DNA of 64,000 nucleotides from Hippasteria phrygiana. Taxonomy: Eukaryota > Echinodermata > Asteroidea > Valvatida > Goniasteridae. Made by a program: the position numbers and the translations under genes. Each line of letters starts with the position of its first letter. Within the stretch, counting starts at the first letter, position 1. The stretch is taken from NCBI GenBank assembly GCA_037893225.1, contig JAZGUH010000225.1, positions 1,798,001 to 1,862,000 of the forward strand, given 5' to 3'. The notes under the pieces are model-generated. The model was given only the letters and a program-made list of their open reading frames with translations, did not search any database and was not told where the DNA came from. Shown one piece after another: positions 8,986-63,605 of the stretch.

Positions 8986-8992
8986 ATATGGC

Positions 8993-36523: not shown

Positions 36524-36720
36524 GGCTGTTTTGGAAACTTTTCCAAAACAGCCCTTGTTTTCGTTAAGATTTTTTTTTTTTTCTTTTTTTGGCTGTTTTG
36601 GAAACTTTTCCAAAACAGCCCTTGTTTTCGTTAAGATTTTTTTTTTTTTCTTTTTTTTTGGCTGTTTCGGAAGTTTTCCGAAACAGCCTTTGTTTTCGTT
36701 AAGATTTTTTTTTTTTTCTT
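36524..36720 (+). repeat. Triple GGCTGTTTTGGAAA hairpin cassette
   Basis: Three head-to-tail units of about 68 bp: a 30-nt hairpin (arms GGCTGTTTTGGAAA and complement, 2-nt centre), CCTTGTTTTCGTTAAGA, then poly-T with a C. In the third, both arms changed to TTTCGGAA/TTCCGAAA, keeping the pairing. The same triple occurs at 49796-49990. Confidence 0.85.
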
Positions 36721-38453
36721 TTTTTTTTCTTTTTCTCTTTCAGACTATTGCCCATAGCATTTGTACACGTTTTCCTTTTTACCGGCACTTTGGCTACTTT
36801 TATGCAGCCGATTGTCTTTAAACTTAGCAAACACTTAAAGCAACTGCTCAGAATGTGTGCCGAACTTTTACGTCATGATGACGTCATCACGTGATTTTTT
36901 ATGAATTTTTGAATTTTGAAAATCGTAACATTTGTTTCAATATATCTAGCGAACAAAACAAGATATTTTCAAAATTCTTTTTGTGATAGCTTTGGTATGT
37001 CTCAAAGATATGCCCTAAAAGGCGAAAATTGTGTGACGTCATGATGACGTCATCAAAAATGTTTTTTTTTTTTTAACGCATGTAAGCGTCAATCCGATTA
37101 CAAAAATGTATATATTGAATTTTCCTCTCCCTAATTCCAAAATGTCATGATTGTGGCTCACTCAAGTAAGAAATAACAGCCATTTCAAAATTTAGACCAA
37201 ATTCAATATAACACAAAGGAATTCTGGGAAGGGCAGATAACCATGGCTCAAATGTGCATGCTGTTTATAAAAAGGGTTGATTTGTAGTCTTTTTTCAAGT
37301 CGCTAGACTATTGCCCATAGCATTTGTAAACGTTTTCTTTCTTACCGGCCACTTTGGCTACTTTTAAACTTGACAGACACTTACCCCAACTGCTCACAAT
37401 GTGTGCCGAATTTTATGTCATGATGACGTCGTCACATGTCACGTGACGTCATCTTAAAGGGGCATTTTTCGAAGCCATCTACAAAAGTACAAGTCCGATT
37501 AAGTTGGAACGTGATATCTAGTTTTTTTTTTTTTTTTTTTTCTCTTTCAGACTATTGCCCATAGCATTTGTACATGTTTTCCTTTTTACCGGCACTTTGG
37601 CTACTTTTATGCAGCCGATTGTCTTTAAACTTAGCAAACACTTAAAGCAACTGCTCAGAATGTGTGCCGAACTTTTACGTCATGATGACATCATCACGTG
37701 ATTTTTTATGAATTTTTGAATTTTGAAAATCGTAACATTTGTTTCAATATATCTAGCAAACAAAACAAGATATTTTCAAAATTCTTTTTGTGATAGCTTT
37801 GGTATGTCTCAAAGATATGCCCTAAAAGGCGAAAATTGTGTGACGTCATGATGACGTCATCAAAAATGTTTTTTTTTTTTAACGCATGTAAGCGTCAATC
37901 CGATTACAAAAATGTATATATTGAATTTTCCTCTCCCTAATTCCAAAATGTCATGATTGTGGCTCACTCAAGTAAGAAATAACAGCCATTTCAAAATTTA
38001 GACCAAATTCAATATAACACAAAGGAATTCTGGGAAGGGCAGATAACCATGGCTCAAATGTGCATGCTGTTTATAAAAAGGGTTGATTTGTAGTCTTTTT
38101 TCAAGTCGCTAGACTTTTGCCCATAGCATTTGTAAACGTTTTCTTTCTTACCGGCCACTTTGGCTACTTTTAAACTTGACAGACACTTACCCCAACTGCT
38201 CACAATGTGTGCCGAATTTTATGTCATGATGACGTCGTCACATGTCACGTGACGTCATCTTAAAGGGGCATTTTTCGAAGCCATCTACAAAAGTACAAGT
38301 CCGATTAAGTTGGAACGTGATATCTAGGTATGCCACCGGGTGTTATAGATGAAAATTGACATGACGTTATAATTATAAGTCAGAACATGTCACGTGACGT
38401 CATCTTAAAGGGGCAGTTTTTGAAGGTCCATATCTACAGAAGTACAAGTCCAA

Positions 38454-41400
38454 CTAGATGTATGGTGCAGTGTTTGTGGACAAACACAGGGCTGTTTTGT
38501 TTTTTTGTGTAAAATTATGTGATTTAAATGAACTTTCAAAAATGAAAAAAATTATAGAAAATTAGCCGATGACGTCATCATGACGTCACATAAATTTTAA
38601 TCTAACACATGCTGGCATAACTAAATACCACGTTTAAACTTAATCTGACTTGTACTTTTGTAGATATATGGTTTCCAAAAATGCCCCTTTAAGATGACGT
38701 CACGTGACATGTGATGACGTCATCATGACGTAAAAGTTTGGCGCACATTCTGAGCAGTTGGTGTAAGTGTCTGCCTACGACTTGTCTAACGACTTGAAAA
38801 AAAGACTAGAGATCAACTCTTTATAGACAGCATGCCACATGAAAGCCATGGTTTCTGTCCTTCCCAGAATTCCTTTGTGTTATATTGAATTTGGTCACAA
38901 TTTTCAGATGCCTGTTATTTCTTAATACTTGAGTGAGCCACGATCACGAAATTGTTGAATTAGGTAGAGAAAAATTCAATGTATACATTTTTTTAATCGG
39001 ACCGACCCTTACATGCGTAAAAAGAAAAAAATTGATGATGTCATTATGACGTCACACAATTTTCGCCTTTTAGGGCATATCTTTGAGACATACCAAAAGC
39101 TGTATCAAAAAGAATTTTGAAAATATCTTGTTTTGTTTGCGAGATATATTTAAAAGAATGTTACGATTTCAAAATTTCAAAAATTCATAACAAATCACGT
39201 GATGACGTCATCATGACGTCACTTTGGATTTTGCATCCTAGTGCCAGTATCTACCTACCCACCAATTTTCATGACGATCGGACCTATCCTTATATGTGTT
39301 TTAAAAAAGCACATTTTTGATGATGTCATCATGACGTCACACATTTTTTTCCTTTTTAGGGCATATCTTTGAGACCTACCAAAGCTATAACAAAAAGAAT
39401 TTTGAAAATATCTTGTTTTGTTTGCCAGATATATTTAAAAAAATGTTACGATTTTCAAAATTTCAAAAATTCATAACAAATCATGTGATGACGTCATCAT
39501 GACGTCATTTTGGATTTTGCATTCTAGTACCAGTATCTACCTACCCACCAATTTTCATTACGATCGGACCTATCCTTATATGTGTTTTAAAAAAGCACAT
39601 TTTTGATGACGTCATCATGACGTCACACACTTTTTACTTTTTATGGCATATCTTTGAGACATACCAAAGCTATAGCAAAAAGAATTTTTAAAATATCTTG
39701 TTTTGTTCGCTAGATATATTGAAAAGAATGTTACGATTTCCAAAATTCAAAAATTCATAAAAAATCACGTGATGACGTCATCATGACCAAAAAGTTCGGG
39801 ACACATTCTGAGCAGTTTGTCTAAGTGTCTGCCAAGTTTAAAGGCAATCGGGTGCACCAAAGTAGCCAAAGTGCCGGTAAGAAAGAAAACGTGCACAAAT
39901 GCTATGGGCAAAAAGTCTGAAAAGGAAAAAAAAAAAAACTAGACATGCTATGTGTTTGTCACGTTATGACAAACACAGGGCTGTTTCGGGGTTGTTTTGT
40001 TATTTTGGATGTGTAATATGCTTATAATAGTAAAAGGTGTTTGTTAGTTAAAGACGGAGGGGTTAGGATGTTGTTGTTGGGAGGAACATAAAATTTACAA
40101 AATAAAAAAAATCATAGAAAATTTGCCGATGACGTCATCATGACGTCACTTCGGCTGCCGCATGCTTGTGGCACACTATCTACATACCCACCAATTTTTA
40201 TGACGATTGGACCTACCCTTATATGTGTTTTTTTTTTAATATATTTTTGATGTCGTCATGATGACGTCACACATTTTCTCATTTATGTGCAAGAATATAG
40301 AAGCTAACAAAGCTATTACAAAAAGAATTTTGAATTTAGCATGTTCTGGTGATGAGATATGGGTTTAAGAAACTTTAAGGTTAAAAAACTTAAAAATTAC
40401 TATAAAATCGTATGATGACGTCATGATGACGTCATGATGACGTCACCTCAATTTTCATCTATAACACGTACTTGTCTACCACCATAGCAGGTTTGAATGC
40501 AATCGGACCTACGGTTCTCTAGATATGTGCCCTTGAAAAATGCACCTTTAAGATGACGTCACATGACAAGTGATGACGTCATCATGACGTCACTCTTCGG
40601 CATACATTCTTAGCTTAGGGTCTCTGTTTGAGTTAAACCTGATTAAGATCTGAGGTTGTTTAGTGACCAAAGTGGCTCTTACAAAATTCGTGTACAAAGT
40701 CTATGGGATTTGGGATAAAACTAAAAAGTCATAGAAAATCAGCTGATGACGTCATCATGACGTCACTTTGGATTTTACATGCTAGTGGCACTATCTACCT
40801 ACCCACCAATTTTCATGACGATCGGACCTATCCTTATATGTGTTTTAAAAAAGCACATTTTTGATGATGTCATCATGACGTCACACATTTTCTCCCTTTC
40901 AGGGCATATCTTTGAGACATACCAAAGCTATAACAAAAAGAATTTTGAAAATATCTTGTTTTGTTCGCTAGATATATTGAACAGAATTTTACGATTTTGA
41001 AATTTCAAAAATTCATAAAAAATCACGTGATGACGTCATCATGACGTAAATGTTCGGCATACATTCTGAGCAGTTGGTCTAAGTGCCTGCCAAGTTTAAA
41101 GCCAATCGGCACCATAAAAGTAGCCAAAGTGCCAGTAAGAAAGAAAACGTGTACAAATGCAATGGGCATTTGGCTGAAAAAGAAGAAAAAAAAAAAGAAA
41201 CTAGACATCTGGTACAGTGTTTGTGGACAAACACAGGGCTGTTTTGTTTTTGTGTGTAAAATTGTGATTAAAATGAAATTTCAAAAATTTCAAAAATCAT
41301 TAAAAAAAATTGACGATGACGTCATCATGACATCATTTCAGATTTTGCATGCTAGTGACAGTATCTACCTACCCACTACTTTTCATGACGATCGGACCTA

Positions 41401-43837
41401 TCCTTATATGTGTTTAAAAAAAAAACATTTTTGATGACGTCATCATGACGTCACACATTTTTTTCCCTTTTAGGGCATATCTTTGAGACCTACCAAAGCT
41501 ATAACAAAAAGAATTTTGAAACTATCTTGTTTTGTTTGCGAGATATATTTAAAAGAATGTTACGATTTCAAAATTTCAAAAATTCATAACAAATCACGTG
41601 ATGACGCCATCATGACGTCACTTTGGATTTTGCATCCTAGTGACAGTATCTACCTTCCCACCAATTTTCATGACGATCGGACCTATCCTTATATGTGTTT
41701 TACAAAAGCACATTTCTGATGATGTCATCATGACGTCACACATTTTTTTCCTTTTTAGGGCATATCTTTAAGACCTACCAAAGCTATAACAAAAATAATT
41801 TTAAAAATATCTTGTTTTGTTTGCCAGATATATTTAAAAGAATTTTACGATTTCAAAATTTCAAAAATTCATAACAAATCACGTGATGACGTCATCATGA
41901 CGTCATTTCAGATTTTGCATGCTGGTGGCAGTATCTACCTACCCACCAATTTTCATGACGATCGGACCTATCCTTATATGTGTTTTAAAAAAGCACATTT
42001 TTGATGATGTCATCATGACGTCACACATTTTTTTCCTTTTTAGGGCATATCTTTGAGACATACCAAAGCTATAACAAAAAGAATTTTGAAAATATCTTGT
42101 TTTGTTCGCTAGATATATTAAAAAAAAAATTACGATTTCAAAATTTCAAAAATTCATAAAAAATCACGTGATGACGTCATCATGACGTAAATGTACGGCA
42201 TACATTCTGAGCAGTTAGTCTAAGTGTCTGCCAAGTTTAAAGCCAATCGGCAGCATAAAAGTAGCCAAAGTGCCAGTAAGAAAGAAAACGTGTACAAATG
42301 CTATGGGCATTTGTCTGAAAAAGAAGCACAAAAAAAAAACTAGAGGCATGAGGTTGGTGTTTGTGGACAAACACAGGGCTGTTTCGTTTTTGTTTTTTTA
42401 GTTTGGATGTGAAATGTGAATACAATAATTTAAGTTTGTCAAAGAATCGCGCTGCTGCCAGTTTTCTTTGGTAATTTTGAAATTAATTAAAGTTGTTTGT
42501 AGTAGTAACATGTGATGACGTCATCATAACGTATCTATAAACTTGCTGACCTACCTAGATATTACTTTTCAACTTAATCGGACTTATACTTTTGTCTATA
42601 TATGGCTTCATAAACAGCCCCTTTAAGATGACGTCACGTGACATGTGATGACATCATCATAATGTCAAGTCACTTTTCATATATAAACCTATATGTACTG
42701 GGCTACCTAGATATTACTTTTCAACTTAATCGGACTGATACTTTTGTTTATATAGCTTCAACAACTGCCCCTTTAAGATGACGTCACGTGACATGTGATG
42801 ACGTCATCATAATGTCAAGTCAAATTTCATCTATAAACCTACTGGGCTACCTAGATATTACTTTTCAACTTAATCGGACTTGTACTTTTGTTTATATATG
42901 GCTTCGAAAAATGCCCCTTTAAGATGACGTCACGTGACATGTGATGACGTCATCATGACGTAAACGTTCGTTACACATTGTGAGCAGTTGGGGTAAGTAT
43001 CTGCCAAGTTTAAAAGTAGCCAAAGTGGCCGGTAAGAAAGAAAACGTTTACAAATGCTATGGGCAATATTCTAGCGACTTGAAAAACAAATTTTTTTATG
43101 ACGTCATCATGACGTCACACAATTTTCGCTTTTTAGGGCATATCTTTGAGACATACCAAAGCTATAACAAAAAGCATTTTGAAAATATCTTGTTTTGTTC
43201 GGTAGATATATTGAAAAGAATGTTACGATTAAAATTGTTTTATAATTTAGCGACTTGAAAAAAGACTACAAATCAACCCTTTTTATAAACAGCATGCACA
43301 TTTAAGCCATGGTTACCTGCCCTTCCCAGAATTCCTTTGTGTTATATTGAATTTGGTCAAAATTTTGAAATGGCTGTTATTTCTTACTTGAGTGAGCCAC
43401 GATCATGAAATTTTGGAATTAGGTACAGAAAAATTCAATGTATACATTTTTGTAATCAGATTGACCCTTACATGCGTTTAAAAAAAAAAAAATTTTGACG
43501 ACGTCATCATGACCTCACACAATTTTCGCCTTTTAGGGCATATCTTTGAGACATACCAAAGCTATAACAAAAAGAATTTTCAAAATATCTTGTTTTTTTC
43601 GTTAGATATATTGAAAAGAATGTTACGATTTTCAAAATTCAAAAATTCATAAAAAATCACGTGATGACGTCATCATTACGTAAAAGTTCGGCAGACATTC
43701 TGAGCAGTTGGTCTAAGTGTCTGCCAAGTTTAAAGCCAATCGGCTGCTTAAAAGTGGCCAAAATGCCGGTTAGAAAGAAAACGTGCACAAATGCTATGGG
43801 CATTTGGCTGAAAAAGAAAAAAAAAAAGAAAAAAAAA

Positions 43838-43869
<32 letters not shown>

Positions 43870-46263
43870 ATCTTAACGAAAACAAGGGCTGTTTCGGAAA
43901 AGTTTCCGAAACAGCCAAAAAAGAAAAACTAGAGGCATGAGGTTGGTGTTTGTGGACAAACACAGGGCTGTTTCGTTTTTTTTTTTTTAGTTTGGATGTG
44001 AAATGTGAATACAATAATTTAAGTTTGTCAAACAATCGCGCTGCTGCCAGTTTTCTTTGGTAATTTTGAAATTAATTAATGTTGTTTGTAGTAGTAACAT
44101 GTGATGACGTCATCATAACGTCACATAAATGTTCATCTATAAACTTGCTGACCTACCTAGATATTGCTTTTCAACTTAATCGGACTTATAATTTTGTTTA
44201 TATATGGCTTCATAAACAGCCCCTTTAAGATGACGTCACGTGACATGTGATGACGTCATCATAATGTCAAGTCACTTATCATATATAAACCTATATGTAC
44301 TGGGCTACCTAGATATTACTTTTCAACTTAATCGGACTGATACTTTTGTTTATATGGCCTTAAAAACTGCCCCTTTAAGATGACGTCACGTGACATGTGA
44401 TGACGTCATCATATAATGTCAATTCAATTTTCATATATAAACCTATATGTACTGGGCTACCTAGATATTACTTTTCAACTTAATCGGACGTGTACTTTTG
44501 TTTATATATGGCTCCAAAAACTGTCCCTTTAAGATGACGTCATGTGGCATGTGATGACGTCATCATCATGTCATGTCAATTTTCATCTATAAACCTACTG
44601 GGCTACCTAGGTATTATTTTTCTACTTAATCGGACTTGTACTTTTGTTTATATATGGCTTCAAAAACTGCCCCTTTAAAATGACGTCAAGGACATGTGAT
44701 GACGTCATCATAATGTCAAGTCAAATTTCATCTATAAACCTACTGGGCTACCTAGGTATTATTTTTCAACTTAATCGGACTTGTACTTTTGTTTATATAT
44801 GGCTTCGAAAAATGCCCCTTTAAGATGACGTCACGTGACATGTGATGACGTCATCATGACGTAAACGTTCGGCACACATTGTGAGCAGTTGGGGTAAGTG
44901 TCTGCCAAGTTTAAAAGTAGCCAAAGTGGCCGGTAAGAAAGAAAACGTTTACAAATGCTATGGGCAATATTCTAGCGACTTGAAAAAAAGATTTTTGTTA
45001 TGACGTCATCATGACGTCACACAATTTTCGCTTTTTAGGGCATATCTTTGAGACATACCAAAGCTATAACAAAAAGCATTTTGAAAATATCTTGTTTTGT
45101 TCGCTAGATATATTGAAAAGAATGTTATGATTGAAATTTTTTATAATTTAGCGACTTGAAAAAAGACTACAAATCAACCCTTTTTATAAACAGCATGCAC
45201 ATTTAAGCCATGGTTATCTGCCCTTCCCAGAATTCCTTTGTGTTATATTGAATTTGGTCTAAATTTTGAAATGGCTCCTATTTCTTACTTGAGTGAGCCA
45301 CGATCATGAAATTTTGGAATTAGGTACAGGAAAATTCAATGTATACATTTTTGTAATCAGATTGACCCTTACATGCGTTTTTAAAAAGAATATTGTTGAT
45401 GACGTCATCATGACGTCACACAATTTTCGCCTTTTAGGGCATATCTTTGAGACATACCAAATCTATAACAAAAAGAATTTTGAAAATATCTTGTTTTGTT
45501 CGCTAGATATAGTGAAAAGAATGTTACGGTTTTAATACTTCAAAAATTCAGCGACTTGAAAAAAGACTAGAAATCAACCCCTTTTTATAAACAGCATGCA
45601 CATTTAAGCCATGGTTATCAGCCCTTCCCAGAATTCCTTTGTGTTATATTGAATTTGGTCTAAATTTTGAAATGGCTCCTATTTCTTACTTGAGTGAGCC
45701 ACGATCATGAAATTTTGGAATTAGGTACAGGAAAATTCAATATATACATTTTTGTAATCGGATTAACCCTTACATACGTAAAAAAACAAAAACATTTTTG
45801 ATGACGTCATCATGACGTCACACAATTTTTGCCTTTTAGGGCATATCTTTGAGACATACCAAACCTATAACAAAAAGAATTTTGAAAATATCTTGTTTTG
45901 TTCGCTAGATATATTAAAAAGAATGTTACGATTTTCAAATTTAAAAAATTCATAAAAAATCACGTGATGACGTCATCATGACATAAAAGATCGGCATGCA
46001 TTCTGAGCAGTTGGTGTAAGTGTCTGTTAAGTTTAAAGGCAATCGGCTGCATAAAAGTAGCCAAAGTGCCTGGCAGAAAGAAATCGTGTACAAATGCTAT
46101 GGGCAAAAGTCTGAAAAAGAAAAAAAAAAAAAAAAGAAAAAAAAAAAAATCTTAACGAAAACAAGGGCTGTTTCGAAAAACTTTCGAAACAGCCAAAAAA
46201 AAAAGAAAAAAAAAAAAATCTTAACGAAAACAAGGGCTGTTTTGGAAAAGTTTCCAAAACAGC
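38454..46263 (-). mobile_element. 7.8-kb reverse-orientation insertion, complete copy
   Basis: Read on the minus strand it begins GGCTGTTTTGGAAA at 46263 and ends ...GTGTTTGTCCACAAACAC, 12 nt, CTAG at 38454. It interrupts a plus-oriented unit: left AGTCCAA, right AATTAAGTTATAAAG. The uninterrupted version AGTCCAATTAAGTTATAAAG is at about 55501-55520. The net gain besides the element is two bases (AA/TT), so either TT belongs to the element's 5' end with A|T insertion, or T|T is the target. It contains internal CTAG ends, so it may be a composite of several elements. Confidence 0.6.
39939..39976 (-). repeat. Variant 3' terminal hairpin with compensating change
   Basis: Here the hairpin is GTGTTTGTC, a 7-nt loop and GACAAACAC, instead of the usual short loop. 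The spacer to CTAG is 9 nt. The sequence changed but the stem is kept, which argues that the hairpin itself is under selection. Confidence 0.7.
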
Positions 46264-49200
46264 CAATTAAGTTATAAAGTAATATCTAGGTAGCCCAATA
46301 GGTCTATAGTTGAAAATTGACATGACATTATCATGTTGTCATCACATGTTACGTGACGTCATCTTAAAGGGGCAGTTTTTGAAGCCACATATAAACAAAA
46401 GTACAAGTTCGATTAAGTTGAAATGTAATATCCAGGCAGGTCTGCAGGTTCATAGATGAAAATTGACATGACATTATGACTTCATCACATGTCACGTGAC
46501 GTCATCTTAAAGAGCCAGTTTTTGAAGCCATATATATACAAAAGTACAAGTCCGATTAAGTTGAAAAGTTATATCTAGTTTTTTTTTCTTTTTTTTTTTT
46601 TTTTTCTTTTTCAGACTTTTGCCCATAGACTTTGTACACGATTTCTTTCTGCCAGGGACTTTGGCTACTTTTATGCAGCCGATTGCCTTTAAACTTAACA
46701 GACACTTAGACCAACTGCTCAGAATGTGTGCCGAACTTTTACGTCATGATGACGTCATCACGTGATTTTTTATGAATTTTTGAATTTTGAAAATCGTAAC
46801 ATTCATTAAATTATATCTAGCGAACAAAACAAGATATTTTCAAAATTCTTTTTCTTATAGCTTTGGTATGTCTCAAAGATATGCCTTAAAAAGCGAAAAT
46901 TGTGTGACGTCATGATGACGTCATCAAAAATGCTTTTTTTTTTTAACGCATGTAAGGGTCAATCTGATTACAAAAATGTATATATTGAATTTTGCTGTAC
47001 CCAATTCCAAAATTTCATGATCGTGGCTCACTCAAGTAAGAAATAACAGCCATTTCAAAATTTAGACCAAATTCAATATAACACAAAGGAATTCTGGGAA
47101 GGGCTGATAACCATGGCTTAAATGTGCATGCTGTTTATAAAAAGGGTTGATTTGTAGTCTTTTTTCAAGTCGCTAAATTATATAAAATTTCAATCATAAC
47201 ATTCTTTTCAATATATCTAGCGAACAAAACAAGATATTTTCAAAATGCTTTTTGTTATAGCTTTGGTATGTCTCAAAGATATGCCCTAAAAAGCGAAAAT
47301 TGTGTGACGTCATGATGACGTCATAACAAAAATATTTTTTTCAAGTCGCTAGAATATTGCCCATAGCATTTGTAAACGTTTTCTTTCTTACCGGCCACTT
47401 TGGCTACTTTTAAACTTGGCAGACACTTACCCCAACTGCTCACAATGTGTGCCGAACGTTTACGTCATGATGACGTCATCACATGTCACGTGACGTCATC
47501 TTAAAGGGGCATTTTTCGAAGCCATATATAAACAAAAGTACAAGTCCGATTAAGTTGAAAAATAATACCTAGGTAGCCCAGTAGGTTTTTAGATGAAATT
47601 TGACTTGACATTATGATGACGTCATCACATGTCCTTAACGTCATTTTAAAGGGGCAGTTTTTGAAGCCATATATAAACAAAAGTACAAGTCCGATTAAGT
47701 AGAAAAATAATACCTAGGTAGCCCAGTAGGTTTATAGATGAAAATTGACATGACATGATGACGTCATCACATGCCACATGACGTCATCTTAAAGGGACAG
47801 TTTTTGGAGCCATATATAAACAAAAGTATAAGTCCGATTAAGTTGAAAAGCAATATCTAGGTAGCCCAGTACATATAGGTTTATATATGAAAATTGAATT
47901 GACATTATGATGACGTCATCACATGTCACGTGACGTCATCTTAAAGGGGCAGTTTTTAAGGCCATATAAACAAAAGTATCAGTCCGATTAAGTTGAAAAG
48001 TAATATCTAGGTAGCCCAGTACATATAGGTTTATATATGATAAGTGACTTGACATTATGATGACGTCATCACATGTCACGTGACGTCATCTTAAAGGGGC
48101 TGTTTATGAAGCCATATATAAACAAAATTATAAGTCCGATTAAGTTGAAAAGTAATATCTAGGTAGGTCAGCAAGTTTATAGATGAACATTTATGTGACG
48201 TTATGATGACGTCATCACATGTTACTACTACAAACAACTTTAATTAATTTCAAAATTACCAAAGAAAACTGGCAGCAGCGCGATTGTTTGACAAACTTAA
48301 ATTATTGTATTCACATTTCACATCCAAACTAAAAAAAACAAAAACGAAACAGCCCTGTGTTTGTCCACAAACACCAACCTCATGCCTCTAGTTTTTTTTT
48401 TTTTTTCTTTTTTTTTTTTTTCCTTTTCAGACTTTTTTGCCCATAGCATTTGTACACGTTTTCTTTCTACCTGGCACTTTGGCTACTTTGGTGCAGCCGA
48501 TTGCCTTCAAACTTGGCAGACACTTAGACAAACTGCTCAGAATGTGTCCCGAACTTTTTGGTCATGATGACGTCATCACGTGATTTTTTATGAATTTTTG
48601 AAATTTTAAAATCGTAAAATTCTTTTCAATATATCTAGCGAACAAAACAAGATATTTTCAAAATTCTTTTTGTTATAGCTCTGGTAGGTCTCAAAGATAT
48701 GCCCTAAAAAGGAAAAAAATGTGTGACGTCATGATGACATCATCAAAAATGTGCTTTTTTAAAACACATATAAGGATAGGTCCGATCGTCATGAAAATTG
48801 GTGGGTAGGTAGATACTGGCACTAGGATGCAAAATCCAAAGTGACGTCATGATGACGTCATCACGTGATTTGTTATGAATTTTTGAAATTTTGAAAATCG
48901 TAATATTTGTTTAAATATATCTGGCAAACAAAACAAGATATTTTCAAAATTATTTTTGTTATAGCTTTGGTAGGTCTCAAAGATATGCCCTAAAAAGGAA
49001 AAAAATGTGTGACGTCATGATGACATCAAAAATGTGCTTTTTTAAAACACATATAAGAATAGGTCCGATCGTCATGAAAATTGGTGGGTAGGTAGATACT
49101 GGTACTAGGATGCAAAATCCAAAGTGACGTCGTGATGACGTCATCACGTGGTTTGTTATGAATTTTTGAAATTTTGAAATCGTAACATTCTTTTAAATAT

Positions 49201-49795
49201 ATCTCGCAAACAAAACAAGAGATTTTCAAAATTCTTTTTGATACAGCTTTTGGTATGTCTCAAAGATATGCCCTAAAAGGCAAAAATTGTGTGACGTCAT
49301 AATGACGTCATCAATTTTTTTTTTTTTTAACGCATGTAAGGGTCGGTCCGAGTAAAAATTTATACATTGAATTTTTCTCTACCTAATTCAACAATTTCGT
49401 GATCGTGGCTCACTCAAGTATTAAGAAATAGCAGGCATCTAAAAAATTCTGACCAAATTCAATATAACACAAAGGAATTCTGGGAAGGACAGAAACCATG
49501 GCTTTCATGTGGCATGCTGTCTATAAAGAGTTGATCTCTAGTCTTTTTTTCAAGTCGTTAGACAAGTCGTAGGCAGATACTTACACCAACTGCTCAGAAT
49601 GTGCGCCGAACTTTTAGGTCATGATGACGTCATCACATGTCACGTGACGTCATCTTAAAGGGGCATTTTTGGAAACCATATATCTACAAAAGTACAAGTC
49701 ACATTAAGTGAAAACGTGGTATTTAGTTATGCCAGCATGTGTTAGATGAAAATGTATGTGACATCATGGTGACGTCATGATGACGTCATCGGCTA

Positions 49796-49978
49796 ATTGG
49801 CTGTTTTGGAAACTTTTCCAAAACAGCCCTTGTTTTCGTTAAGATTTTTTTTTTTTTCTTTTTTTTTGGCTGTTTCGGAAGTTTTCCGAAACAGCCTTTG
49901 TTTTCGTTAAGATTTTTTTTTTTTTCTTTTTGGCTGTTTTGGAAACTTTTCCAAAACAGCCCTTGTTTTCGTTAAGAT

Positions 49979-49990
<12 letters not shown>
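49796..49990 (+). repeat. Second triple GGCTGTTTTGGAAA hairpin cassette
   Basis: Same three-unit layout as 36524-36720, preceded by GGCTAATT and followed by a T-run of about 40 and GTGCTTCCTTTTCAGAC. Uninterrupted relatives read GGCTAATTTTCTATGA (e.g. 54465), so the cassette entered at the T-run after GGCTAA. Confidence 0.8.
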
Positions 49991-50023
<33 letters not shown>

Positions 50024-50446
50024 TGCTTCCTTTTCAGACTTTTTTCCCATAGCATTTGTACACGTTTTCTTTCTTACCGGCACTTTGGCTACTTTGGTGC
50101 ACCCGATTGACTTTAAACTTGGCAGACACTTAGACAAACTGCTCAGAATGTGTCCCGAACTTTTTGGTCATGATGACGTCATCACGTGATTTTTTATGAA
50201 TTTTTGAAATTTGAAAATCGTAAAATTCTTTTCAATATATCTAGCGAACAAAACAAGATATTTTCAAAATTCTTTTTGTTATAGCTTTGGTATGTCTCAA
50301 AGATATGCCCTAAAACGGAGAAAATGTGTGACGTCATGATGACATCATCAAAAATGTGCTTTTTTAAAACACATATAAGGATAGGTCCGATCGTCATGAA
50401 AATTGGTGGGTAGGTAGATACTGGCACTAGGATGCAAAATCCAAAG

Positions 50447-50732: not shown

Positions 50733-51539
50733 TGACGTCATGATGACGTCATCACGTGATTTGTTATGAATTTTTGAAATTTTGAAATCGTAACATTCTT
50801 TTAAATATATCTCGCAAACAAAACAAGATATTTTCAAAATTCTTTTTGATACAGCTTTTGGTATGTCTCAAAGATATGCCCTAAAAGGCGAAAATTGTGT
50901 GACGTCATAATGACGTCATCAATTTGTTTTCTTTTTACGCATGTAAGGGTCGGTCCGATTAAAAAAATGTATACATTGAATTTTTCTCTACCTAATTCAA
51001 CAATTTCGTGATCGTGGCTCACTCATGTATTAAGAAATAACAGGCATCTGAAAATTGTGACCAAATTCAATATAACACAAAGGAATTCTGGGAAGGACAG
51101 AAACCATGGCTTTCATGTGGCATGCTGTCTATAAAGAGTTGATCTCTAGTCTTTTTTTCAAGTCGTTAGACAAGTCGTAGGCAGACACTTACACCAACTG
51201 CTCAGAATGTGCGCCGAACTTTTACGTCATGATGACGTCATCACATGTCATGTGACGTCATCTTAAAGGTGCATTTTTTGAAGCCATATATCTACAAAAG
51301 TACAAGTCAGATTAAGTTAAAACGTGGTATTTAGTTATGCCAGCATGTGTTAGATGAAAATTTATGTGACGTCATGATGACGTCATCGGCTAATTTTCTA
51401 TCATTTTTTTCATTTTTGAAATTTCATTTAAATCACATAATTTTACACAAAAAAACAAAACAGCCCTGTGTTTGTCCACAAACACTGCACCATACATCTA
51501 GTTTTTGGCTGTTTTGGAAACTTTTCCAAAACAGCCCTT

Positions 51540-51553
51540 GTTTTCGTTAAGAT

Positions 51554-51585
<32 letters not shown>

Positions 51586-51610
51586 TTTTTTTCTTTTTTT
51601 TTTTTTTCCT
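51540..51610 (+). repeat. Poly-T tract after the hairpin cassette
   Basis: Long T-runs broken by single C follow GTTAAGA. Similar tracts are at 22780-22835, 49977-50022, 56101-56154 and (as A) 43815-43870. Length differs strongly between copies, as expected of replication slippage. Confidence 0.9.
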
Positions 51611-54600: not shown

Positions 54601-56100
54601 ACTATTGCCCATAGCATTTGTACACGTTTTCCTTTTTACCGGCACTTTGGCTACTTTTATGCAGCCGATTGTCTTTAAACTTAGCAAACACTTAAAGCAA
54701 CTGCTCAGAATGTGTGCCGAACTTTTACGTCATGATGACGTCATCACGTGATTTTTTATGAATTTTTGAATTTTGAAAATCGTAACATTTGTTTCAATAT
54801 ATCTAGCGAACAAAACAAGATATTTTCAAAATTCTTTTTGTGACAGCTTTGGTATGTCTCAAAGATATGCCCTAAAAGGCGAAAATTGTGTGACGTCATG
54901 ATGACGTCATCAAAAATGTGTTTTTTTTTTTACGCATGTAAGGGTCAATCCGATTACAAAAATTTATATATTGAATTTTCCTCTCCCTAATTCCAAAATG
55001 TCATGATCGTGGCTCACTCAAGTAAGAAATAACAGCCATTTCAAAATTTAGACCAAATTCAATATAACACAAAGGAATTCTGGGAAGGGCAGATAACCAT
55101 GGCTCAAATGTGCATGCTGTTTATAAAAAGGGTTGATTTGTAGTCTTTTTTCAAGTCGCTAGACTATTGCCCATAGCATTTGTAAACGTTTTCTTTCTTA
55201 CCGGCCACTTTGGCTACTTTTAAACTTGACAGACACTTACCCCAACTGCTCACAATGTGTGCCGAATTTTATGTCATGATGACGTCATCACATGTCACGT
55301 GACGTCATCTTAAAGGGGCATTTTTCGAAGCCATATATCTACAAAAGTACGAGTCCGATTAAGTTGGAACGTGATATCTAGGTATGCCACCGGGTGTTAT
55401 AGATGAAAATTTACATGACGTTATGATTATAAGTCAGAACATGTCACGTGACGTCATCTTAAAGGGGCAGTTTTTGAAGGTCCATATCTACAGAAGTACA
55501 AGTCCAATTAAGTTATAAAGTAATATCTAGGTAGCCCAATAGGTCTATAGTTGAAAATTGACATGACATTATCATGTTGTCATCACATGTTACGTGACGT
55601 CATCTTAAAGGGGCAGTTTTTGAAGCCACATATAAACAAAAGTACAAATTCGATTAAGTTGAAATGTAATATCCAGGCAGGTCTGCAGGTTATAGATGAA
55701 AATTGACATGACATTATGACTTCATCACATGTCACGTGACGTCATCTTAAAGAGCCAGTTTTTGAAGCCATATATATACAAAAGTACAAGTCCGATAAAG
55801 TTGAAAAGTTATATCTAGGTAGGTCAGCAAGTTTATAGATGAAAATTTATGTGACTTTATGATGACGTCATCACATGTCACTATTACAAACAACTTTAAT
55901 TAATTTCAAAATTAACAAAGAAAAGTGGCAGTAGTGCGATTGTTTGACAAACTTTAATTGTTGTATTCACATTTCACATCCAAACTAAAAAAAAAAAACG
56001 AAACAGCCCTGTGTTTGTCCACAAACACCAACCTCATGCCTCTAGTTTTTTTTGGCTGTTTTGGAAACTTTTCCAAAACAGCCCTTGTTTTCGTTAAGAT

Positions 56101-56132
<32 letters not shown>

Positions 56133-59100
56133 TTTTTTTCTTTTTTTTTTTTTTCCTTTTCAGACTTTTTTGCCCATAGCATTTGTACACGTCTTCTTTC
56201 TTACTGGCACTTTGGCTACTTTGGTGCACCCGATTGTCTTTAAACTTGGCAGACACTTAGACAAACTGCTCAGAATGTGTCCCGAACTTTTTGGTCATGA
56301 TGACGTCATCACGTGATTTTTTATGAATTTTCGAAATTTGAAAATCGTAACATTCTTTTCAATATATCTAGCGAACAAAACAAGATATTTTCAAAATTCT
56401 TTTTGTTATAGCTTTGGTATGTCTCAAAGATATGCCCTAAAACGGAGAAAATGTGTGACGTCATGATGACATCATCAAAAATGTGCTTTTTTATAACACA
56501 TATAAGGATAGGTCCGATCGTCATGAAAATTGGTGGGTAGGTAGATACTGGCACTAGGATGCAAAATCCAAAATGACGTCATGATGACGTCATCACGTGA
56601 TTTGTTATGAATTTTTGAAATTTTGAAAATCGTAATATTCTTTTAAATATATCTGGCAAACAAAACAAGATATTTTCAAAATTCTTTTTGTTATAGCTTT
56701 GGTAGGTCTCAAAGATATGCCCTAAAAAGGAAAAAAATGTGTGACGTCATGATGACGTCATCAAAAATGTGCTTTTTAAAAACACATATAAGGATAGGTC
56801 CGATCGTCATAAAAATTGGTGGGTAGGTAGATACTGGCACTAGGATGCAAAATCCAAAGTGACGTCATGATGACGTCATCACGTGATTTTTTATGAATTT
56901 TTGAAATTTTGAAATCGTAAAATTCTTTTAAATATATCTGGCAAACAAAACAAGATATTTTCAAAGTTCTTTTTGTTATAGCTTTGGTAGGTCTCAAAGA
57001 TATGCCCTAAAAAGGAAAAAAATGTGTGACGTCTTGATGACGTCATCAAAAATGTGCTTTTTAAAAACACATATAAGGATAGGTCCGATCGTCATGAAAA
57101 TTGGTGGGTAGGTAGATACTGTCACTAGCATGCAAAATCTGAAATGATGTCATGATGACGTAATCGGCAATTTTTTTTATGATTTTTGAAATTTTTGAAA
57201 TTTCATTTTCATCACAAAATTTTACACAAAAAAACAAAACAGCCCTGTGTTTGTCCACAAACACTGTACCAGATGTCTAGTTTTTTTTTTTTTTTTTTTT
57301 TGTGCTTCCTTTTCAGACTTTTTCCCCATAGCATTTGTACACGTTTTCTTTCTTACCGGCACTTTGGCTACTTTGGTGCACCCGATTGACTTTAAACTTG
57401 GCAGACACTTAGACAAACTGCTCAGAATGTGTCCCGAACTTTTTGGTCATGATGACGTCATCACGTGATTTTTTATGATTTTTTGAAATTTGAAAATCGT
57501 AAAATTCTTTTCAATATATCTAGCGAACAAAACAAGATATTTTCAAAATTCTTTTTGTTATAGCTTTGGTAGGTCTCAAAGATATGCCCTAAAAGGGAAA
57601 AAAATGTGTGACGTCATGATGACATCATCAAAAATGTGCTTTTTTAAAACACATATAAGGATAGGTCCGATCGTCATGAAAATTGGTAGGTAGGTAGATA
57701 CTGGCACTAGGATGCAACATCCAAAGTGACGTCATGATGACGTCATCACGTGATTTTTTATGAATTTTTGAAATTTTGAAAATCGTAACATTCTTTTAAA
57801 TATATCTGGCAAACAAAACAAGATATTTTCAAAATTCTTTTTGTTATAGCTTTGGTAGGTCTCAAAGATATGCCCTAAAAAGGAAAAAAATGTGTGACGT
57901 CATGATGACATCATCAAAAATGTGCTTTTTTAAAACACATATAAGGATAGGTCCGATCGTCATGAAAATTGGTGGGTAGGTAGATACTGGCACTAGGATG
58001 CAAAATCCAAAGTGACGTCATGATGACGTCATCACATGATTTGTTATGAATTTTTGAAATTTTGAAATCGTAACATTCTTTTAAATATATCTCGCAAACA
58101 AAACAAGATATTTTCAAAATTCTTTTTGATACAGCTTTTGGTATGTCTCAAAGATATGCCCTAAAAGGCGAAAATTGTGTGACGTCATAATGACGTCATC
58201 AATTTTTTTCTTTTTACGCATGTAAGGGTCGGTCCGATTAAAAAAATGTATACATTGAATTTGTCTCCACCTAATTCAACAATTTCGTGATCGTGGCTCA
58301 CTCAAGTATTAAGAAATAACAGGCATCAGAAAATTGTGACCAAATTCAATATAACACAAAGGAATTCTGGGAAGGACAGAAACCATGGCTTTCATGTGGC
58401 ATGCTGTCTATAAAGAGTTGATCTCTAGTCTTTTTTTCAAGTCGTTAGACAAGTCGTAGGCAGACACTTACACCAACTGCTCAGAATGTGCGCCGAACTT
58501 TTACGTCATGATGACGTCATCACATGTCATGTGACGTCATCTTAAAGGTGCATTTTTTGAAGCCATTCTACAAAAGTACAAGTCAGATTAAGTTAAAACG
58601 TGGTATTTAGTTATGCCAGCATGTGTTAGATGAAAATTTATGTGACGTCATGATGACGTCATCGGCTAATTTTCTATAATTTTTTTTTTTTGTGCTTCCT
58701 TTTCAGACTTTTTCCCCATAGCATTTGTGCACGTTTTCTTTCTTACCGGCACTTTGGCTACTTTGGTGCACCCGATTGCCTTTAAACTTGGCAGACACTT
58801 AGACAAACTGCTCAGAATGTGTCCCGAACTTTTTGGTCATGATGACGTCATCACGTGATTTTTTATGAATTTTTGAAATTTGAAAATCGTAAAATTCTTT
58901 TCAATATATCTAGCGAACAAAACAAGATATTTTCAAAATTCTTTTTGCTATAGCTTTGGTATGTCTCAAAGATATGCCCTAAAAGGGAGAAAATGTGTGA
59001 CGTCATGATGACATCATCAAAAATGCGCTTTTTAAAAACACATATAAGGATAGGTCCGATCGTCATGAAAATTGGTGGGTAGGTAGATACTGGCACTAGG

Positions 59101-62100
59101 ATGCAAAATCCAAAGTGACGTCATGATGACGTCATCACGTGATTTGTTATGAATTTTTGAAATTTTGAAAATCGTAACATTCTTTTAAATATATCTGGCA
59201 AACAAAACAAGATATTTTCAAAATTCTTTTTGTTATAGCTTTGGTAGGTCTCAAAGATATGCCCTAAAAAGGAAAAAAATGTGTGACGTCATGATGACAT
59301 CATCAAAAATGTGCTTTTTTAAAACACATATAAGGATAGGTCCGATCGTCATGAAAATTGGTGGGTAGGTAGATACTGGTACTAGGATGCAAAATCCAAA
59401 GTGACGTCATGATGACGTCATCACGTGATTTGTTATGAATTTTTGAAATTTTGAAATCGTAACATTCTTTTAAATATATCTCGCAAACAAAACAAGAGAT
59501 TTTCAAAATTCTTTTTGATACAGCTTTTGGTATGTCTCAAAGATATGCCCTAAAAGGCGAAAATTGTGTGACGTCATAATGACGTCATCAATTTTTTTTT
59601 TTAACGCATGTAAGGGTCTGTCCGATTAAAAATGTATACATTGAATTTTTCTCTACCTAATTCAACAATTTCGTGATCGTGGCTCACTCAAGTATTAAGA
59701 AATAACAGGCATCTAAAAATTGTGACCAAATTCAATATAACACAAAGGAATTCTGGGAAGGACAGAAACCATGGCTTTCATGTGGCATACTGTCTATAAA
59801 GAGTTGATCTCTAGTCTTTTTTTCAAGTCGTTAGACAAGTCGCAGGCAGATACTTACACCAACTGCTCAGAATGTGCGCCGAACTTTTAGGTCATGATGA
59901 CGTCATCACATGTCACGTGACGTCATCTTAAAGGGGCATTTTTAGAAACCATATATCTACAAAAGTACAAGTCACATTAAGTTAAAACGTGGTATTTAGT
60001 TATGCCAGCATGTGTTAGATGAAAATGTATGTGACGTCATGGTGACGTCATGATGACGTTTTCCCATAGCATTTGTACACGTTTTCTTTCTTACCGGCAC
60101 TTTGGCTACTTTGGTGCACCCGATTGACTTTAAACTTGGCAGATACTTAGACAAACTGCTCAGAATGTGTCCCGAACTTTTTGGTCATGATGACGTCATC
60201 ACGTGATTTTTTATGAATTTTTGAAATTTGAAAATCGTAAAATTCTTTTCAATATATCTAGCAAACAAAACAAGATATTTTCAAAATTCTTTTTGTTATA
60301 GCTTTGGTATGTCTCAAAGATATGCCCTAAAATGGAGAAAATGTGTGACGTCATGATGACATCATCAAAAATGTGCTTTTTTATAACACATATAAGGATA
60401 GGTCCGATCGTCATGAAAATTGGTGGGTAGGTAGATACTGGCACTAGGATGCAAAATCCAAAGTGACGTCATGATGACGTCATCACGTGATTTGTTATGA
60501 ATTTTTGAAATTTTGAAAATCGTAACATTCTTTTCAATATATCTGGCAAACAAAACAAGATATTTTCAAAATTCTTTTTGTTATAGCTTTGGTAGGTCTC
60601 AAACATATGCCCTAAAAAGGAAAAAAATGTGTGACGTCATGATGACATCATCAAAAATGTGCTTTTTTAAAACACATATAAGGATAGGTCCGATCGTCAT
60701 GAAAATTGGTGGGTAGGTAGATACTGGTATTAGGATGCAAAATCCAAAGTGACGTCATGATGACGTCATCACGTGATTTGTTATGAATTTTTGAAATTTT
60801 GAAATCGTAACATTCTTTTCAATATATCTCGCAAACAAAACAAGAGATTTTCAAAATTCTTTTTGATACAGCTTTTGGTATGTCTCAAAGATATGCCCTA
60901 AAAGGCGAAAATTGTTTGACGTCATAATGACGTCATCAATTTTTTTTTTTTACGCATGTAAGGGTCGGTCCGATTAAAAATTTATACATTGAATTTTTCT
61001 CTACCTAATTCAACAATTTCGTGATCGTGGCTCACTCAAGTATTAAGAAATAACAGGCATCTAACAAATTGTGACCAAATTCAATATAACACAAAGGAAT
61101 TCTGGGAAGGACAGAAACCATGGCTTTCATGTGGCATGCTGTCTATAAAGAGTTGATCTCTAGTCTTTTTTTCAAGTCGTTAGACAAGTCGTAGGCAGAT
61201 ACTTACACCAACTGCTCAGAATGTGCGCCGAACTTTTAGGTCATGATGACGTCATCACATGTCACGTGACGTCATCTTAAAGGGGCATTTTTGGAAACCA
61301 TATATCTACAAAAGTACAAGTCACATTAAGTTAAAACGTGGTATTTAGTTATGCCAGCATGTGTTAGATGAAAATGTATGTGACGTCATGGTGACGTCAT
61401 GATGACGTCATCGGCTAATTTTCTATGATTTTTTTCATTTTTGAAATTTCATTTAAATCACATAATTTTACACAAAAAAACAAAACAGCCCTGTGTTTGT
61501 CCACAAACACTGCACCAGATGTCTAGTTTTTTTTTTTTTTTTTTTTTTTTTTTTCCTTTTCAGACTTTTTCCCATAGCATTTGTACACGTTTTCTTTCTT
61601 ACCGGCACTTTGGCTACTTTTATGTTACCGATTGACTTCAAACTTGGCAGACACTTAGACTAACTGCTCAGAATGTATGCCGAACATTTACGTCATGATG
61701 ACGTCATCACGTGATTTTTTATGAATTTTTGAAATTTGAAAATCGTAATATTCTTTTTAATATATCTAGCGAACAAAATAAGATATTTTCAAAATTCTTT
61801 TTGTGACAGCTTTGGTATGTCTCAAAGATATGCACTAAAAGAAAAAAAAATGTGTGATGTCATGATGACGTCATCAAAAATGTGCTTTTTTAAAACACAT
61901 ATAAGGATAGGTCCGATCGTCATAAAAATTGGTGGGTAGGTAGATACTGGCACTAGGATGCAAAATCCAAAATGACGTCATGATGACGTCATCACGTGAT
62001 TTGTTATGAATTTTTGAAATTTTGAAAATCGTAACATTCTTTTAAATATATCTGGCAAACAAAACAAGATATTTCCAAAATTCTTTTTGTTATAGCTTTG

Positions 62101-63571
62101 GTAGGTCTCAAAGATATGCCCTAAAAAGGAAAAAAATGTGTGACGTCATGATAACATCATCAAAAATGTCCTTTTTTAAAACACATATAAGGATAGGTCC
62201 GACCGTCATGAAAATTGGTGGGTAGGTAGATACTGCCACCAGCATGCAGAAGCCGAAGTGACGTCATGATGACGTCATCACGTGATTTTTTATGAATTTT
62301 TGAAATTTTGAAATCGTAAAATTCTTTTAAATATATCTGGCAAACAAAACAAGATATTTTCAAAATTCTTTTTGTTATAGCTTTGGTAGGTCTCAAAGAT
62401 ATGCCCTAAAAAGGAAAAAAATGTGTGACGTCATGATGACATCATCAAAAATGTGCTTTTTTAAAACACATATAAGGATAGGTCCGATCGTCATGAAAAT
62501 TGGTGGGTAGGTAGATACTGGCACTAGGATGCAAAATCCAAAATGACGTCATGATGACGTCATCACGTGATTTGTTATGAATTTTTGAAATTTTGAAAAT
62601 CGTAACATTCTTTTAAATATATCTGGCAAACAAACAAGATATTTCCAAAATTCTTTTTGTTATAGCTTTGGTAGGTCTCAAAGATATGCCCTAAAAAGGA
62701 AAAAAATGTGTGACGTCATGATGACATCATCAAAAATGTCCTTTTTTAAAACACATATAAGGATAGGTCCGACCGTCATGAAAATTGGTGGGTAGGTAGA
62801 TACTGCCACCAGCATGCAGAAGCCGAAGTGACGTCATGATGACGTCATCACGTGATTTGTTATGAATTTTTGAAATTTTGAAATCGTAACATTCTTTTAA
62901 ATATATCTCGCAAACAAAACAAGAGATTTTCAAAATTCTTTTTGATACAGCTTTTGGTATGTCTCAAAGATATGCCCTAAAAGGCGAAAATTGTGTGACG
63001 TCATAATGACGTCATCAATTTTTTTTTTTAACGCATGTAAGGGTCGGTCCAATTAAAAATTTATACATTGAATTTTTCTCTACCTAATTCAACAATTTCG
63101 TGATCGTGGCTCACTCAAGTATTAAGAAATAACAGGCATCTAAAAAATTGTGACCAAATTCAATATAACACAAAGGAATTCTGGGAAGGACAGAAACCAT
63201 GGCTTTCATGTGGCATGCTGTCTATAAATAGTTGATCTCTAGTCTTTTTTTCAAGTCGTTAGACAAGTCGTAGGCAGATACTTACACCAACTGCTCAGAA
63301 TGTGCGCCGAACTTTTAGGTCATGATGACGTCATCACATGTCACGTGACGTCATCTTAAAGGGGCATTTTTGGAAACCATATATCTACAAAAGTACAAGT
63401 CACATTAAGTTAAAACGTGGTATTTAGTTATGCCAGCATGTGTTAGATGAAAATGTATGTGACGTCATGGTGACGTCATGATGACGTCATCGGCTAATTT
63501 TCTATGATTTTTTTCATTTTAGAAATTTCATTTAAATCACATAATTTTACACAAAAAAACAAAACAGCCCT

Positions 63572-63605
63572 GTGTTTGTCCACAAACACTGCACCAGATG
63601 TCTAG
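63572..63605 (+). repeat. Right end of the array: terminal hairpin and CTAG
   Basis: GTGTTTGTCCACAAACAC (63572-63589), TGCACCAGATGT, CTAG (63602-63605), then TTATCATTTTTTTTCC of unrelated sequence. This fixes the 3' boundary of the family at CTAG|T. Confidence 0.75.

What the first reader, a model, noticed from the sequence alone, without database searches (positions are those of the whole stretch)
36524..63605. CRE-rich array built from elements with Helitron-type 3' ends
Fourteen sites across both arrays (24992 plus thirteen in 36524-63605) share an 18-nt hairpin GTGTTTGTCCACAAACAC, a 12-13 nt spacer, CTAG, and a following T, in either orientation. Helitrons end with a short hairpin about 10-12 nt before CTRR and insert next to T. 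Here the ends lie within a satellite-like array, and new copies begin in the T-run directly after CTAG (e.g. 51498 and 56042). I infer tandem self-insertion that converts a rolling-circle transposon into a long array. No Rep/helicase is present in the window.
Basis: partly seen in the sequence, partly recalled or inferred. Interest (0 to 1): 0.88.

Follow-up and report, generated by a model that had tools for sequence, protein, structure and literature searches.

The report
Self-nesting rolling-circle transposon array
This stretch of an animal genome is a satellite-like array built from many copies of a small rolling-circle transposon of a known kind (a Helentron derivative) that has jumped into itself and been copied in tandem, and it shows how a jumping element can turn into a long repeat array.

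Summary
In detail: 13 exact hairpin-CTAG ends plus one variant. Ends, TT insertion and internal tandem repeats fit Helitron2/Helentron non-autonomous elements (HINEs), not canonical Helitrons. Self-insertion is shown: removing an inverted 7.8-kb block restores a copy that matches an intact one (304/307, no gap), and a sister array holds nested insertions. A probable autonomous partner was read at one locus: a 25-kb unit with such ends around an antisense Rep-helicase-endonuclease gene. Insertion is not the only builder: some arrays hold nearly identical leaderless units (0-3 differences in about 1,157), so tandem amplification also acts. Multi-unit blocks recur at two loci, so pre-assembled oligomers probably moved together. 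HINEs, self-insertion and Helitron-derived arrays are in print; this is a new, unusually legible member. A weak constraint signal on its CRE octamers (TGACGTCA) is unexplained.

The parts
22731..24996 (+). Isolated full-length copy (HINE): leader 22733, poly-T, CRE-rich tandem-repeat body, subTIR, 3' hairpin, CTAG|T
   Evidence: among 40 scored matches of its 300-base left flank only the window itself is full length, the others cover at most its first 88 bases
36524..63605 (.). Composite array: 13 hairpin ends (8 on +, 5 on -), 11 leaders found by pattern (8 on +, 3 on -), five truncated plus-strand units
36524..36700 (+). Stack of three leaders (36524, 36591, 36660), each GGCTGTTT..AAACAGCC plus poly-T
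49799..50022 (+). Stack of three leaders (49799, 49868, 49932) joined to an interrupted upstream copy at GGCTAATT; the other half of that copy was not found in the window
51507..51536 (+). Leader beginning in the T-run directly after the CTAG of the previous copy
56054..56083 (+). Leader beginning in the T-run directly after the CTAG of the previous copy
38453..46265 (-). Inverted block with five 3' ends and three leaders, inserted at AATT of a plus-strand copy; removal restores a copy that matches 55355-55661 at 304/307 without gap
39939..39976 (-). Variant 3' end (long stem, 5-nt loop, 9-nt spacer, CTAG|T)
37500..37530 (+). Unit truncated exactly at an internal ATATCTAG, followed by poly-T and the next body
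46560..46590 (+). Second unit truncated exactly at an internal ATATCTAG, followed by poly-T and the next body
63556..63605 (+). Right end of the array: subTIR, hairpin, CTAG, then TTATC flank

Best explanation
The array is made of a non-autonomous Helentron (HINE) family, about 1.1-2.3 kb per complete unit in the window. Each complete copy has a 5' palindromic leader with a subterminal inverted repeat, a poly-T tract, a body of CRE-rich tandem repeats, and a 3' inverted repeat, hairpin and CTAG. Shown: copies insert at TT, including inside each other. Inferred: a Helentron Rep-helicase-endonuclease supplied in trans moves them by rolling-circle transposition. Inferred: because each copy carries its own poly-T target between leader and body, new copies land there, leaving stacked leaders upstream and leaderless bodies downstream. 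Inferred: recombination or slippage between poly-T tracts then multiplies or deletes leaderless units, and multi-unit blocks, starting at an outer leader and ending at a distal CTAG, can move as one when inner 3' ends are bypassed.
For: Ends: 3,028 of 3,032 hairpin ends are CTAG|T; a slightly shorter pattern has a non-T second base 58 times. 2,336 leaders; all 100 listed keep the palindrome as T..A or C..G; two leaders fold at z -6.5 and -8.0. 8 of 12 window leaders start inside a T-run. Order: on C1-C19, 24 of 27 multi-token clusters begin with a leader and finish with a 3' end (shuffle mean 9.6, 0 of 5,000 reach 24). Filled/empty sites: window block; C1:908455-915577 and, nested in it, C1:911676-913698, both fitting best with two Ts dropped. 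Mixing: one inverted unit is as close to plus units (0.965) as these are to each other (0.965). Oligomers: window block collinear with C1 over 3,141 (93.9%) and 2,600 (97.2%) positions across inner CTAG ends. Amplification: three C19 units differ by 0-3 of about 1,157; in a second array one pair differs by 4 of 846. Partner: 14 of 33 Reps have an antisense end within 60 kb; 29 of 31 pairs are antisense, about 0.7 expected per class. In C105 an ORF with Rep, PIF1, Exo_endo_phos and OTU lies between HINE leaders with a HINE-like 5' region and a subTIR-hairpin-CTA|T8 3' end.
Against: Leaders and ends are not balanced: 11 against 13 in the window array; 60 exact leaders against 84 ends in C1-C19 (pattern counts, leaders a lower bound). 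The typed bracket test of pure nesting fails (P 0.33 with types shuffled; 0.019 with order shuffled). Identity falls only weakly with distance (r -0.21, P 0.13), which does not exclude some local copying. Five of 13 plus-strand units are truncated, two at an internal CTAG without hairpin. In the collinear blocks one homologous inner end has a different spacer (window 41201 TGTACCAGATGT, C1 921498 TGCACCATACAT). The folds of two exact 3' hairpins are not remarkable (z -1.0, -2.0). Partner: 17 of 33 Reps have no such end within 60 kb and 2 only a same-strand one; pairs are not independent. The C105 end that drew me there belongs to a 570-bp mini-copy with its own leader; the unit's own 3' end, just upstream, reads CTCTA|T, lacking the last G. 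No leader or end lay in 20 kb read around two other Reps; at C1 leaders and ends lie just outside that stretch. No circle or transposition was observed.
Confidence: 0.86

Rival explanations
1. Canonical Helitron (Helitron1) non-autonomous family: 5' TC, 3' hairpin and CTRR, insertion between A and T.
For: 3' hairpin 12-13 nt before CTAG and T after it; the same 3' layout as Helraiser (PMC4778049, passages).
Against: 5' end is TT|GGCTG, not TC; 10-bp subterminal inverted repeat and 5' hairpin; target is TT; the one Rep gene read between such ends carries an endonuclease domain.
Confidence: 0.04
2. Ordinary satellite array grown mainly by unequal crossing over or replication slippage from one old insertion; the transposon ends are passive passengers.
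For: C19 arrays with almost identical units; an 8,961-bp tandem duplication in C1; truncated units at T-runs (58680, 60059).
Against: Does not give an inverted block with a restorable target site, nested insertions with both flanks, closeness of units regardless of orientation, or dispersed clusters with one leader and one CTAG end.
Confidence: 0.07
3. Rolling-circle concatemers: one transposition event reads round a circle several times and lays down a ready-made array, as proposed for plant centromeric Helitrons (Xiong et al. 2016, known here only through PMC12628747 and other papers that cite it).
For: Homogeneous leaderless units behind leader stacks in C19; arrays that start with leaders and finish with CTAG.
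Against: The window array mixes subfamilies that are 86-99% alike, and 13 of its 18 units keep a complete 3' end; one circle would give identical units.
Confidence: 0.2

Closest known systems
HINE / DINE-1 (non-autonomous Helentrons), PMC4067079 (passages)
   Same: Palindromic subterminal inverted repeats near the 5' end, 3' subTIR followed by a palindrome, TT target with variable Ts at the boundary, internal tandem repeats, clustering
   Different: Here the 3' end is CTAG (that paper gives CTAG for a Phytophthora proto-Helentron that inserts between A and T); the shared subTIR is 10 bp and ends 36-37 nt from the 3' end, against 12-15 bp and 38-60 bp in the mite HINEs; units are CRE-rich
Helitron2 group, PMC3627910 (passages) and Fusarium FoHeli, PMC5148889 (passages)
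   Same: Hairpins at both ends, asymmetric terminal inverted repeats, antisense Rep in some members, self-insertion with duplicated 5' termini
   Different: FoHeli ends are TCAG..ATTTT or TGCCT..CTCCTGT; here arrays of many units with many 3' ends, and stacks of up to six leaders in the loci read (C1:151330-151622)
Cg_HINE satellite-carrying elements of Pacific oyster, PMC7492417 (passages), and scrambled Helitron loci reviewed in PMC12628747 (passages)
   Same: HINE with internal satellite-like repeats; elements truncated, tandemized and inserted in other elements
   Different: Here filled/empty sites, leader stacks and recurring multi-unit blocks are resolved; no sequence comparison with oyster was made
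Helraiser (bat Helitron), PMC4778049 (passages)
   Same: Hairpin 11 nt before CTAG|T acting as terminator; end bypass gives longer mobile units
   Different: AT target and 5' TC; described there with a Rep-helicase core; the subTIR and endonuclease seen here are not among the features in the passages I read

Membership tests
HINE / Helentron | Subterminal inverted repeats, the 5' one palindromic, close to the 5' end | tested here: met
   GGCTGTTTYG / CRAAACAGCC, 5' copy directly after TT; palindrome kept in the 100 leaders listed of 2,336
HINE / Helentron | Short palindrome between the 3' subTIR and the 3' end | tested here: met
   18-nt hairpin 2 nt after the subTIR, 12-13 nt before CTAG, in 13 of 13 exact window ends
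HINE / Helentron | Insertion at TT, Ts at both boundaries, no long target duplication | tested here: met
   T in 3,028 of 3,032; three filled/empty sites, each with two extra Ts (small gaps remain in the two C1 sites). Whether the two Ts are a 2-bp duplication or part of the element cannot be told
HINE / Helentron | No coding capacity; internal tandem repeats | tested here: met
   Only one stop-to-stop frame of 120 aa or more in 36524-63605 (129 aa); TRF arrays with periods of about 145-150 and 286 bp
HINE / Helentron | Shares ends with an autonomous Rep-helicase-endonuclease element | tested here: met
   C105 unit, minus strand, 742.4 to 717.36 kb: leaders, HINE-like 5' region, antisense ORF with Helitron_like_N, PIF1 and Exo_endo_phos, subTIR-hairpin-CTA|T8. 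Caveats: last G of CTAG missing, spacer different, one locus read in full
Helitron2 | Hairpins at both ends and asymmetric terminal inverted repeats of 8-15 bp | tested here: met
   10-bp ATIR; folds: leader z -6.5 and -8.0; 3' hairpin z -1.0, -2.0 and, variant, -5.8, so the 3' hairpin rests on its conservation rather than on its energy
Canonical Helitron (Helitron1) | 5' TC | tested here: not met
   TT|GGCTG at the four window boundaries that do not lie in poly-T
Canonical Helitron (Helitron1) | Insertion between A and T | tested here: not met
   TT on both sides in the three reconstructed sites
Canonical Helitron (Helitron1) | 3' hairpin about 11 nt before CTRR, followed by T | tested here: met
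HINE / Helentron | Mobilisation by rolling-circle replication through a circular intermediate | not testable with these tools
   No experimental data

The most novel reading that the evidence does not exclude
A transposon that carries its own landing site: the poly-T tract between leader and body is a preferred target of the family, so the element assembles itself into nested hetero-oligomers, which then move as composite units and feed poly-T-mediated satellite growth. The CRE sites (TGACGTCA) in the units are under constraint, perhaps as binding sites that help transcription, opening or transposition of the arrays.
Probability: 0.35. Interest if true: 0.65.

Novelty: new member of a known kind. 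Interest (0 to 1): 0.48.

Why it matters
How transposons turn into satellite DNA is an open question with several proposed routes: self-insertion, rolling-circle concatemers, unequal exchange. This family keeps 3,028 exact 3' ends and 2,336 exact leaders in one 944-Mb genome, with a probable autonomous partner, and its leaders, poly-T tracts and CTAG ends act as event markers. Insertion, composite movement and tandem amplification can be told apart locus by locus, which makes the question directly testable.

Tried and rejected
Pure nested-insertion model with one leader per end: leader and end numbers do not balance and the type-matching test was not significant (P 0.33), so it was kept only as one of several processes. 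Internal-CTAG truncations (37521, 46578): chance about 1e-4 under uniform truncation, but a deletion between TCTAG microhomologies would do the same, so no claim of hairpin-free cleavage is made. Independent transposition of the C1 four-unit block: its right flank is duplicated at 915577 and 924538 (8,961 bp apart), so only the shared unit order is used. CRE constraint: 4 changes in 829 CRE bases against 139 in 9,572 other non-CpG bases; P 0.043 against complex 8-mers and 0.0062 against CpG 8-mers; suggestive only, from 8 related copies of which one divergent ninth (p13) was left out. IMG/VR scans with three patterns gave 0 contigs each. Species not identified: the DDE_3 protein search returned transposases, many of them from named fish; a second protein search scored nothing at E 1e-5. 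Early leader scans (substitutions only) missed leaders with indels; a relaxed scan found one at C105:717352, and reading the stretch showed the partner's own 3' end just upstream of it, which changed my reading of that locus.

The array's left flank (36024-36523) could not be searched, so no empty site for the whole array is known. For the isolated copy the left-flank search found the window itself and fragments.
Full report
OBSERVATION. The hairpin GTGTTTGTCCACAAACAC is present exactly 13 times in the window, against 0.09 expected in shuffles. Every one is followed by a 12- or 13-nt spacer, CTAG and T. The fourteenth site is a variant on the minus strand (hairpin 39976-39952, CTAG 39942-39939) with the same outer stem and a different middle.

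THE MISSING 5' END. Scanning the window showed a 30-bp palindromic leader, typically GGCTGTTTYGGAAACTTTTCCRAAACAGCC, followed by CTTGTTTTCGTTAAGA and poly-T, at 22733, 36524, 36591, 36660, 49799, 49868, 49932, 51507 and 56054 on the plus strand and 46264, 46194 and 43916 on the minus strand; 8 of these 12 start inside a T-run. Its first ten bases are the inverse of the ten bases that stand two bases before the 3' hairpin. In the isolated copy GGCTGTTTCG goes with CGAAACAGCC, and the outer pair of the inverted block shows GGCTGTTTTG with CAAAACAGCC. The 3' copy ends 36 or 37 nt before the end of CTAG. This is the asymmetric terminal inverted repeat of Helitron2 (PMC3627910, passages) and the subTIR of HINEs (PMC4067079, passages).

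GENOME-WIDE TEST. 3,028 hairpin ends are followed by CTAGT and 4 by CTAG plus another base. A slightly shorter pattern finds 58 cases with a non-T second base, so TT follows in roughly 98%. Exact leaders number 2,336, and all 100 listed keep the palindrome as T..A or C..G although the pattern would have allowed mixtures. Further leaders in C105 read GGCTGTTTCGTAGTTTTACGAAACAGCC, changed on both arms. On contigs C1-C19 leaders and ends form 29 clusters, none of mixed strand (the window array, on C225, is mixed); of 27 with more than one token, 24 begin with a leader and finish with a 3' end (shuffles: mean 9.6, none of 5,000 as high), and nine have a leader and a single end, 0.6-5.9 kb apart. 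Of 30 genome ends read, the script filed 15 as poly-T plus body, 4 as poly-T plus leader and 11 as other; by eye several are misfiled because their leaders are variant, and the rest run into host flank or the interior of another copy.

SELF-INSERTION. In the window the stretch 38453-46265 (7,813 bp, five 3' ends, all on the minus strand) interrupts a plus-strand copy at AATT. Joining the flanks gives 304 of 307 identities without a gap to the intact copy at 55355-55661. In a sister array on C1 a 7,123-bp block (908455-915577) sits in CTTTTT|GTTATAGC, and a 2,023-bp copy inside it (911676-913698) sits in GGCTAATT|TTCTATG. In both cases the joined site fits window copies best when two Ts are dropped (95.3% over 300 and 95.5% over 265 positions), although 2 and 7 gap positions remain. 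So an insertion adds the element plus two Ts. Whether these are a 2-bp duplication or belong to the element is undecided, as it was for HINEs in print.

HOW THE ARRAYS GROW. Three processes can be told apart. First, insertion of different subfamilies: window units are 86-99% alike in their best local match, one inverted unit is as close to plus-strand units as these are to each other (0.965 and 0.965), and identity falls only weakly with distance (r -0.21, P 0.13). Leaders stack at the upstream side, up to six at C1:151330-151622, while many bodies downstream lack leaders, as expected if new copies enter the poly-T between leader and body of a resident. But numbers are unbalanced (11 leaders and 13 ends in the window array) and a bracket-matching test is weak (P 0.33 with types shuffled, 0.019 with order shuffled), so leader loss or another process must act. 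Second, tandem amplification: in one C19 array, of which four of five ends were fetched, three leaderless units of 1,158-1,160 bp differ by 0, 3 and 3 substitutions; in another, two units of 846-847 bp differ by 4 while the first unit differs from them by 48 and 52. Poly-T on both sides of such a unit makes unequal exchange or slippage the simplest cause, and a rolling-circle concatemer is the rival. Third, movement of oligomers: the window block is collinear with C1:918863-921988 over 3,141 aligned positions (93.9%) and with C1:905023-907621 over 2,600 (97.2%), across inner CTAG ends. One homologous inner end differs in its spacer (window 41201, C1 921498), so the match is not perfect. The flanks differ, so the oligomer probably existed before at least one of the sites was filled; read-through of an inner 3' end, as shown for Helraiser (PMC4778049, passages), would do it, but recombination between arrays is not excluded.

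TRUNCATIONS. Five of 13 plus-strand units are truncated. Two stop exactly at an internal ATATCTAG followed by poly-T (37521, 46578). With five internal CTAGs in a 1,438-bp unit, two of four or five truncations at CTAG has a chance of about 1e-4. Use of CTAG without its hairpin, or a deletion between TCTAG microhomologies, would both explain it.

THE PARTNER. PF14214 (Helitron_like_N) matches 150 places, the number scored of 164 candidates, many in open frames above 3,000 aa. One such ORF (C215) carries Herpes_teg_N, OTU, DUF6570, Helitron_like_N, PIF1 and Exo_endo_phos domains; the endonuclease is the mark of Helentrons. Ends with another upstream context than the window HINEs number 643. Of 33 Reps on contigs up to C107, 14 have such an end within 60 kb on the opposite strand, 2 only on the same strand and 17 none; of 31 pairs 29 are opposite (about 0.7 expected per class; pairs share ends and are not independent). 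All 12 such ends fetched carry CGAAACAGCCCT, a hairpin (7 exact, 5 with GTGTTTGTCCACGGGACAAACAC) and CTAG|TT. One locus was read in full: C105, minus strand, four leaders (742425-742234), a HINE-like 5' region (longest matches 89-91%), the antisense ORF 724091-734437 with the same domain set, CRE-rich HINE-like sequence (about 83-90%), and subTIR-hairpin-CAAAGCTCTA|T8 ending at 717361. In the following poly-T a 570-bp mini-copy with its own leader (717352) and end (716783) has inserted; that mini-copy's end, not the unit's own, was the one counted, so the co-location count by itself does not prove shared ends. Against it: this 3' end lacks the final G, the likeness is 83-93%, and around two other Reps (C215, C1) no leader or end lay in the 20 kb read, although at C1 a leader stack (151.3-151.6 kb) and ends (196.1, 200.8 kb) lie just outside it. 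Antisense Rep is known in Helitron2 (PMC3627910 and PMC5148889, passages).

COMPARED WITH WHAT IS KNOWN. It works like, and by the tested features is, a HINE family. It fails canonical Helitron membership at the 5' end and target. Self-insertion with multiplied 5' ends (PMC5148889), HINE-borne satellites (PMC7492417), scrambled loci and Helitron-derived tandem arrays (PMC12628747) are in print. Searches of the open library listed, by title and abstract, no description of leader stacks around a poly-T landing site in a CTAG-ended HINE, but I read only passages of seven papers and most subscription papers are not held. Novelty is therefore a new member of a known kind with an unusually complete record.

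UNEXPLAINED. TGACGTCA (the CRE octamer; name recalled) is about 68 times denser in the array than in the rest of the window, and its bases vary about a third as much as others among eight related units. This is weak evidence for a function.

Noticed in passing
window 64-792 (+): ORF with a DDE_3 transposase domain (E 5e-28), about 57-63% identical to many fish Tc1/IS630-like transposases and 95-97% to two unnamed ENA proteins.
   Followed up: partly
window 1436-9742: A nested set of minisatellites: an 82-bp repeat at 2012-2230 returns in inverted orientation at 8996-9372 around CCCATATGGGC-type arrays (2453-3168, 6568-8870), and TGTGCGATGTT repeats lie outside at 1436-1722 and 9662-9742; may be one foldback-like element.
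   Followed up: no
window 11452-11510, 14099-14218, 33326-33463, 35375-35433: GGCCTC/CCGAGG hexamer arrays, two of them with a 33-bp superperiod, in opposite orientations in the two halves of the region.
   Followed up: no
window 16789-16861 (-): tRNA match, 53.4 bits, the only Rfam hit at gathering score in the window.
   Followed up: no
window 25360-25397: Perfect 38-nt palindrome GTTTTCCAACGATTTCCAGCTGGAAATCGTTGGAAAAC downstream of the isolated copy.
   Followed up: no
L051-L052, G000:C1:915577-925982: 8,961-bp tandem duplication inside the sister array: an end, a leader, an end and a leader repeat at constant offset.
   Followed up: partly
L046-L047 (C215) and L071, L074 (C105): The Helentron ORFs carry Herpes_teg_N and OTU (protease-like) domains ahead of Rep; the C105 ORF also shows a weak PHD finger below its cut-off.
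   Followed up: no
G000:C19:734301-738600 (L056): Array whose shortest units are only 846-847 bp, with four leaders stacked upstream; useful for mechanism tests.
   Followed up: partly
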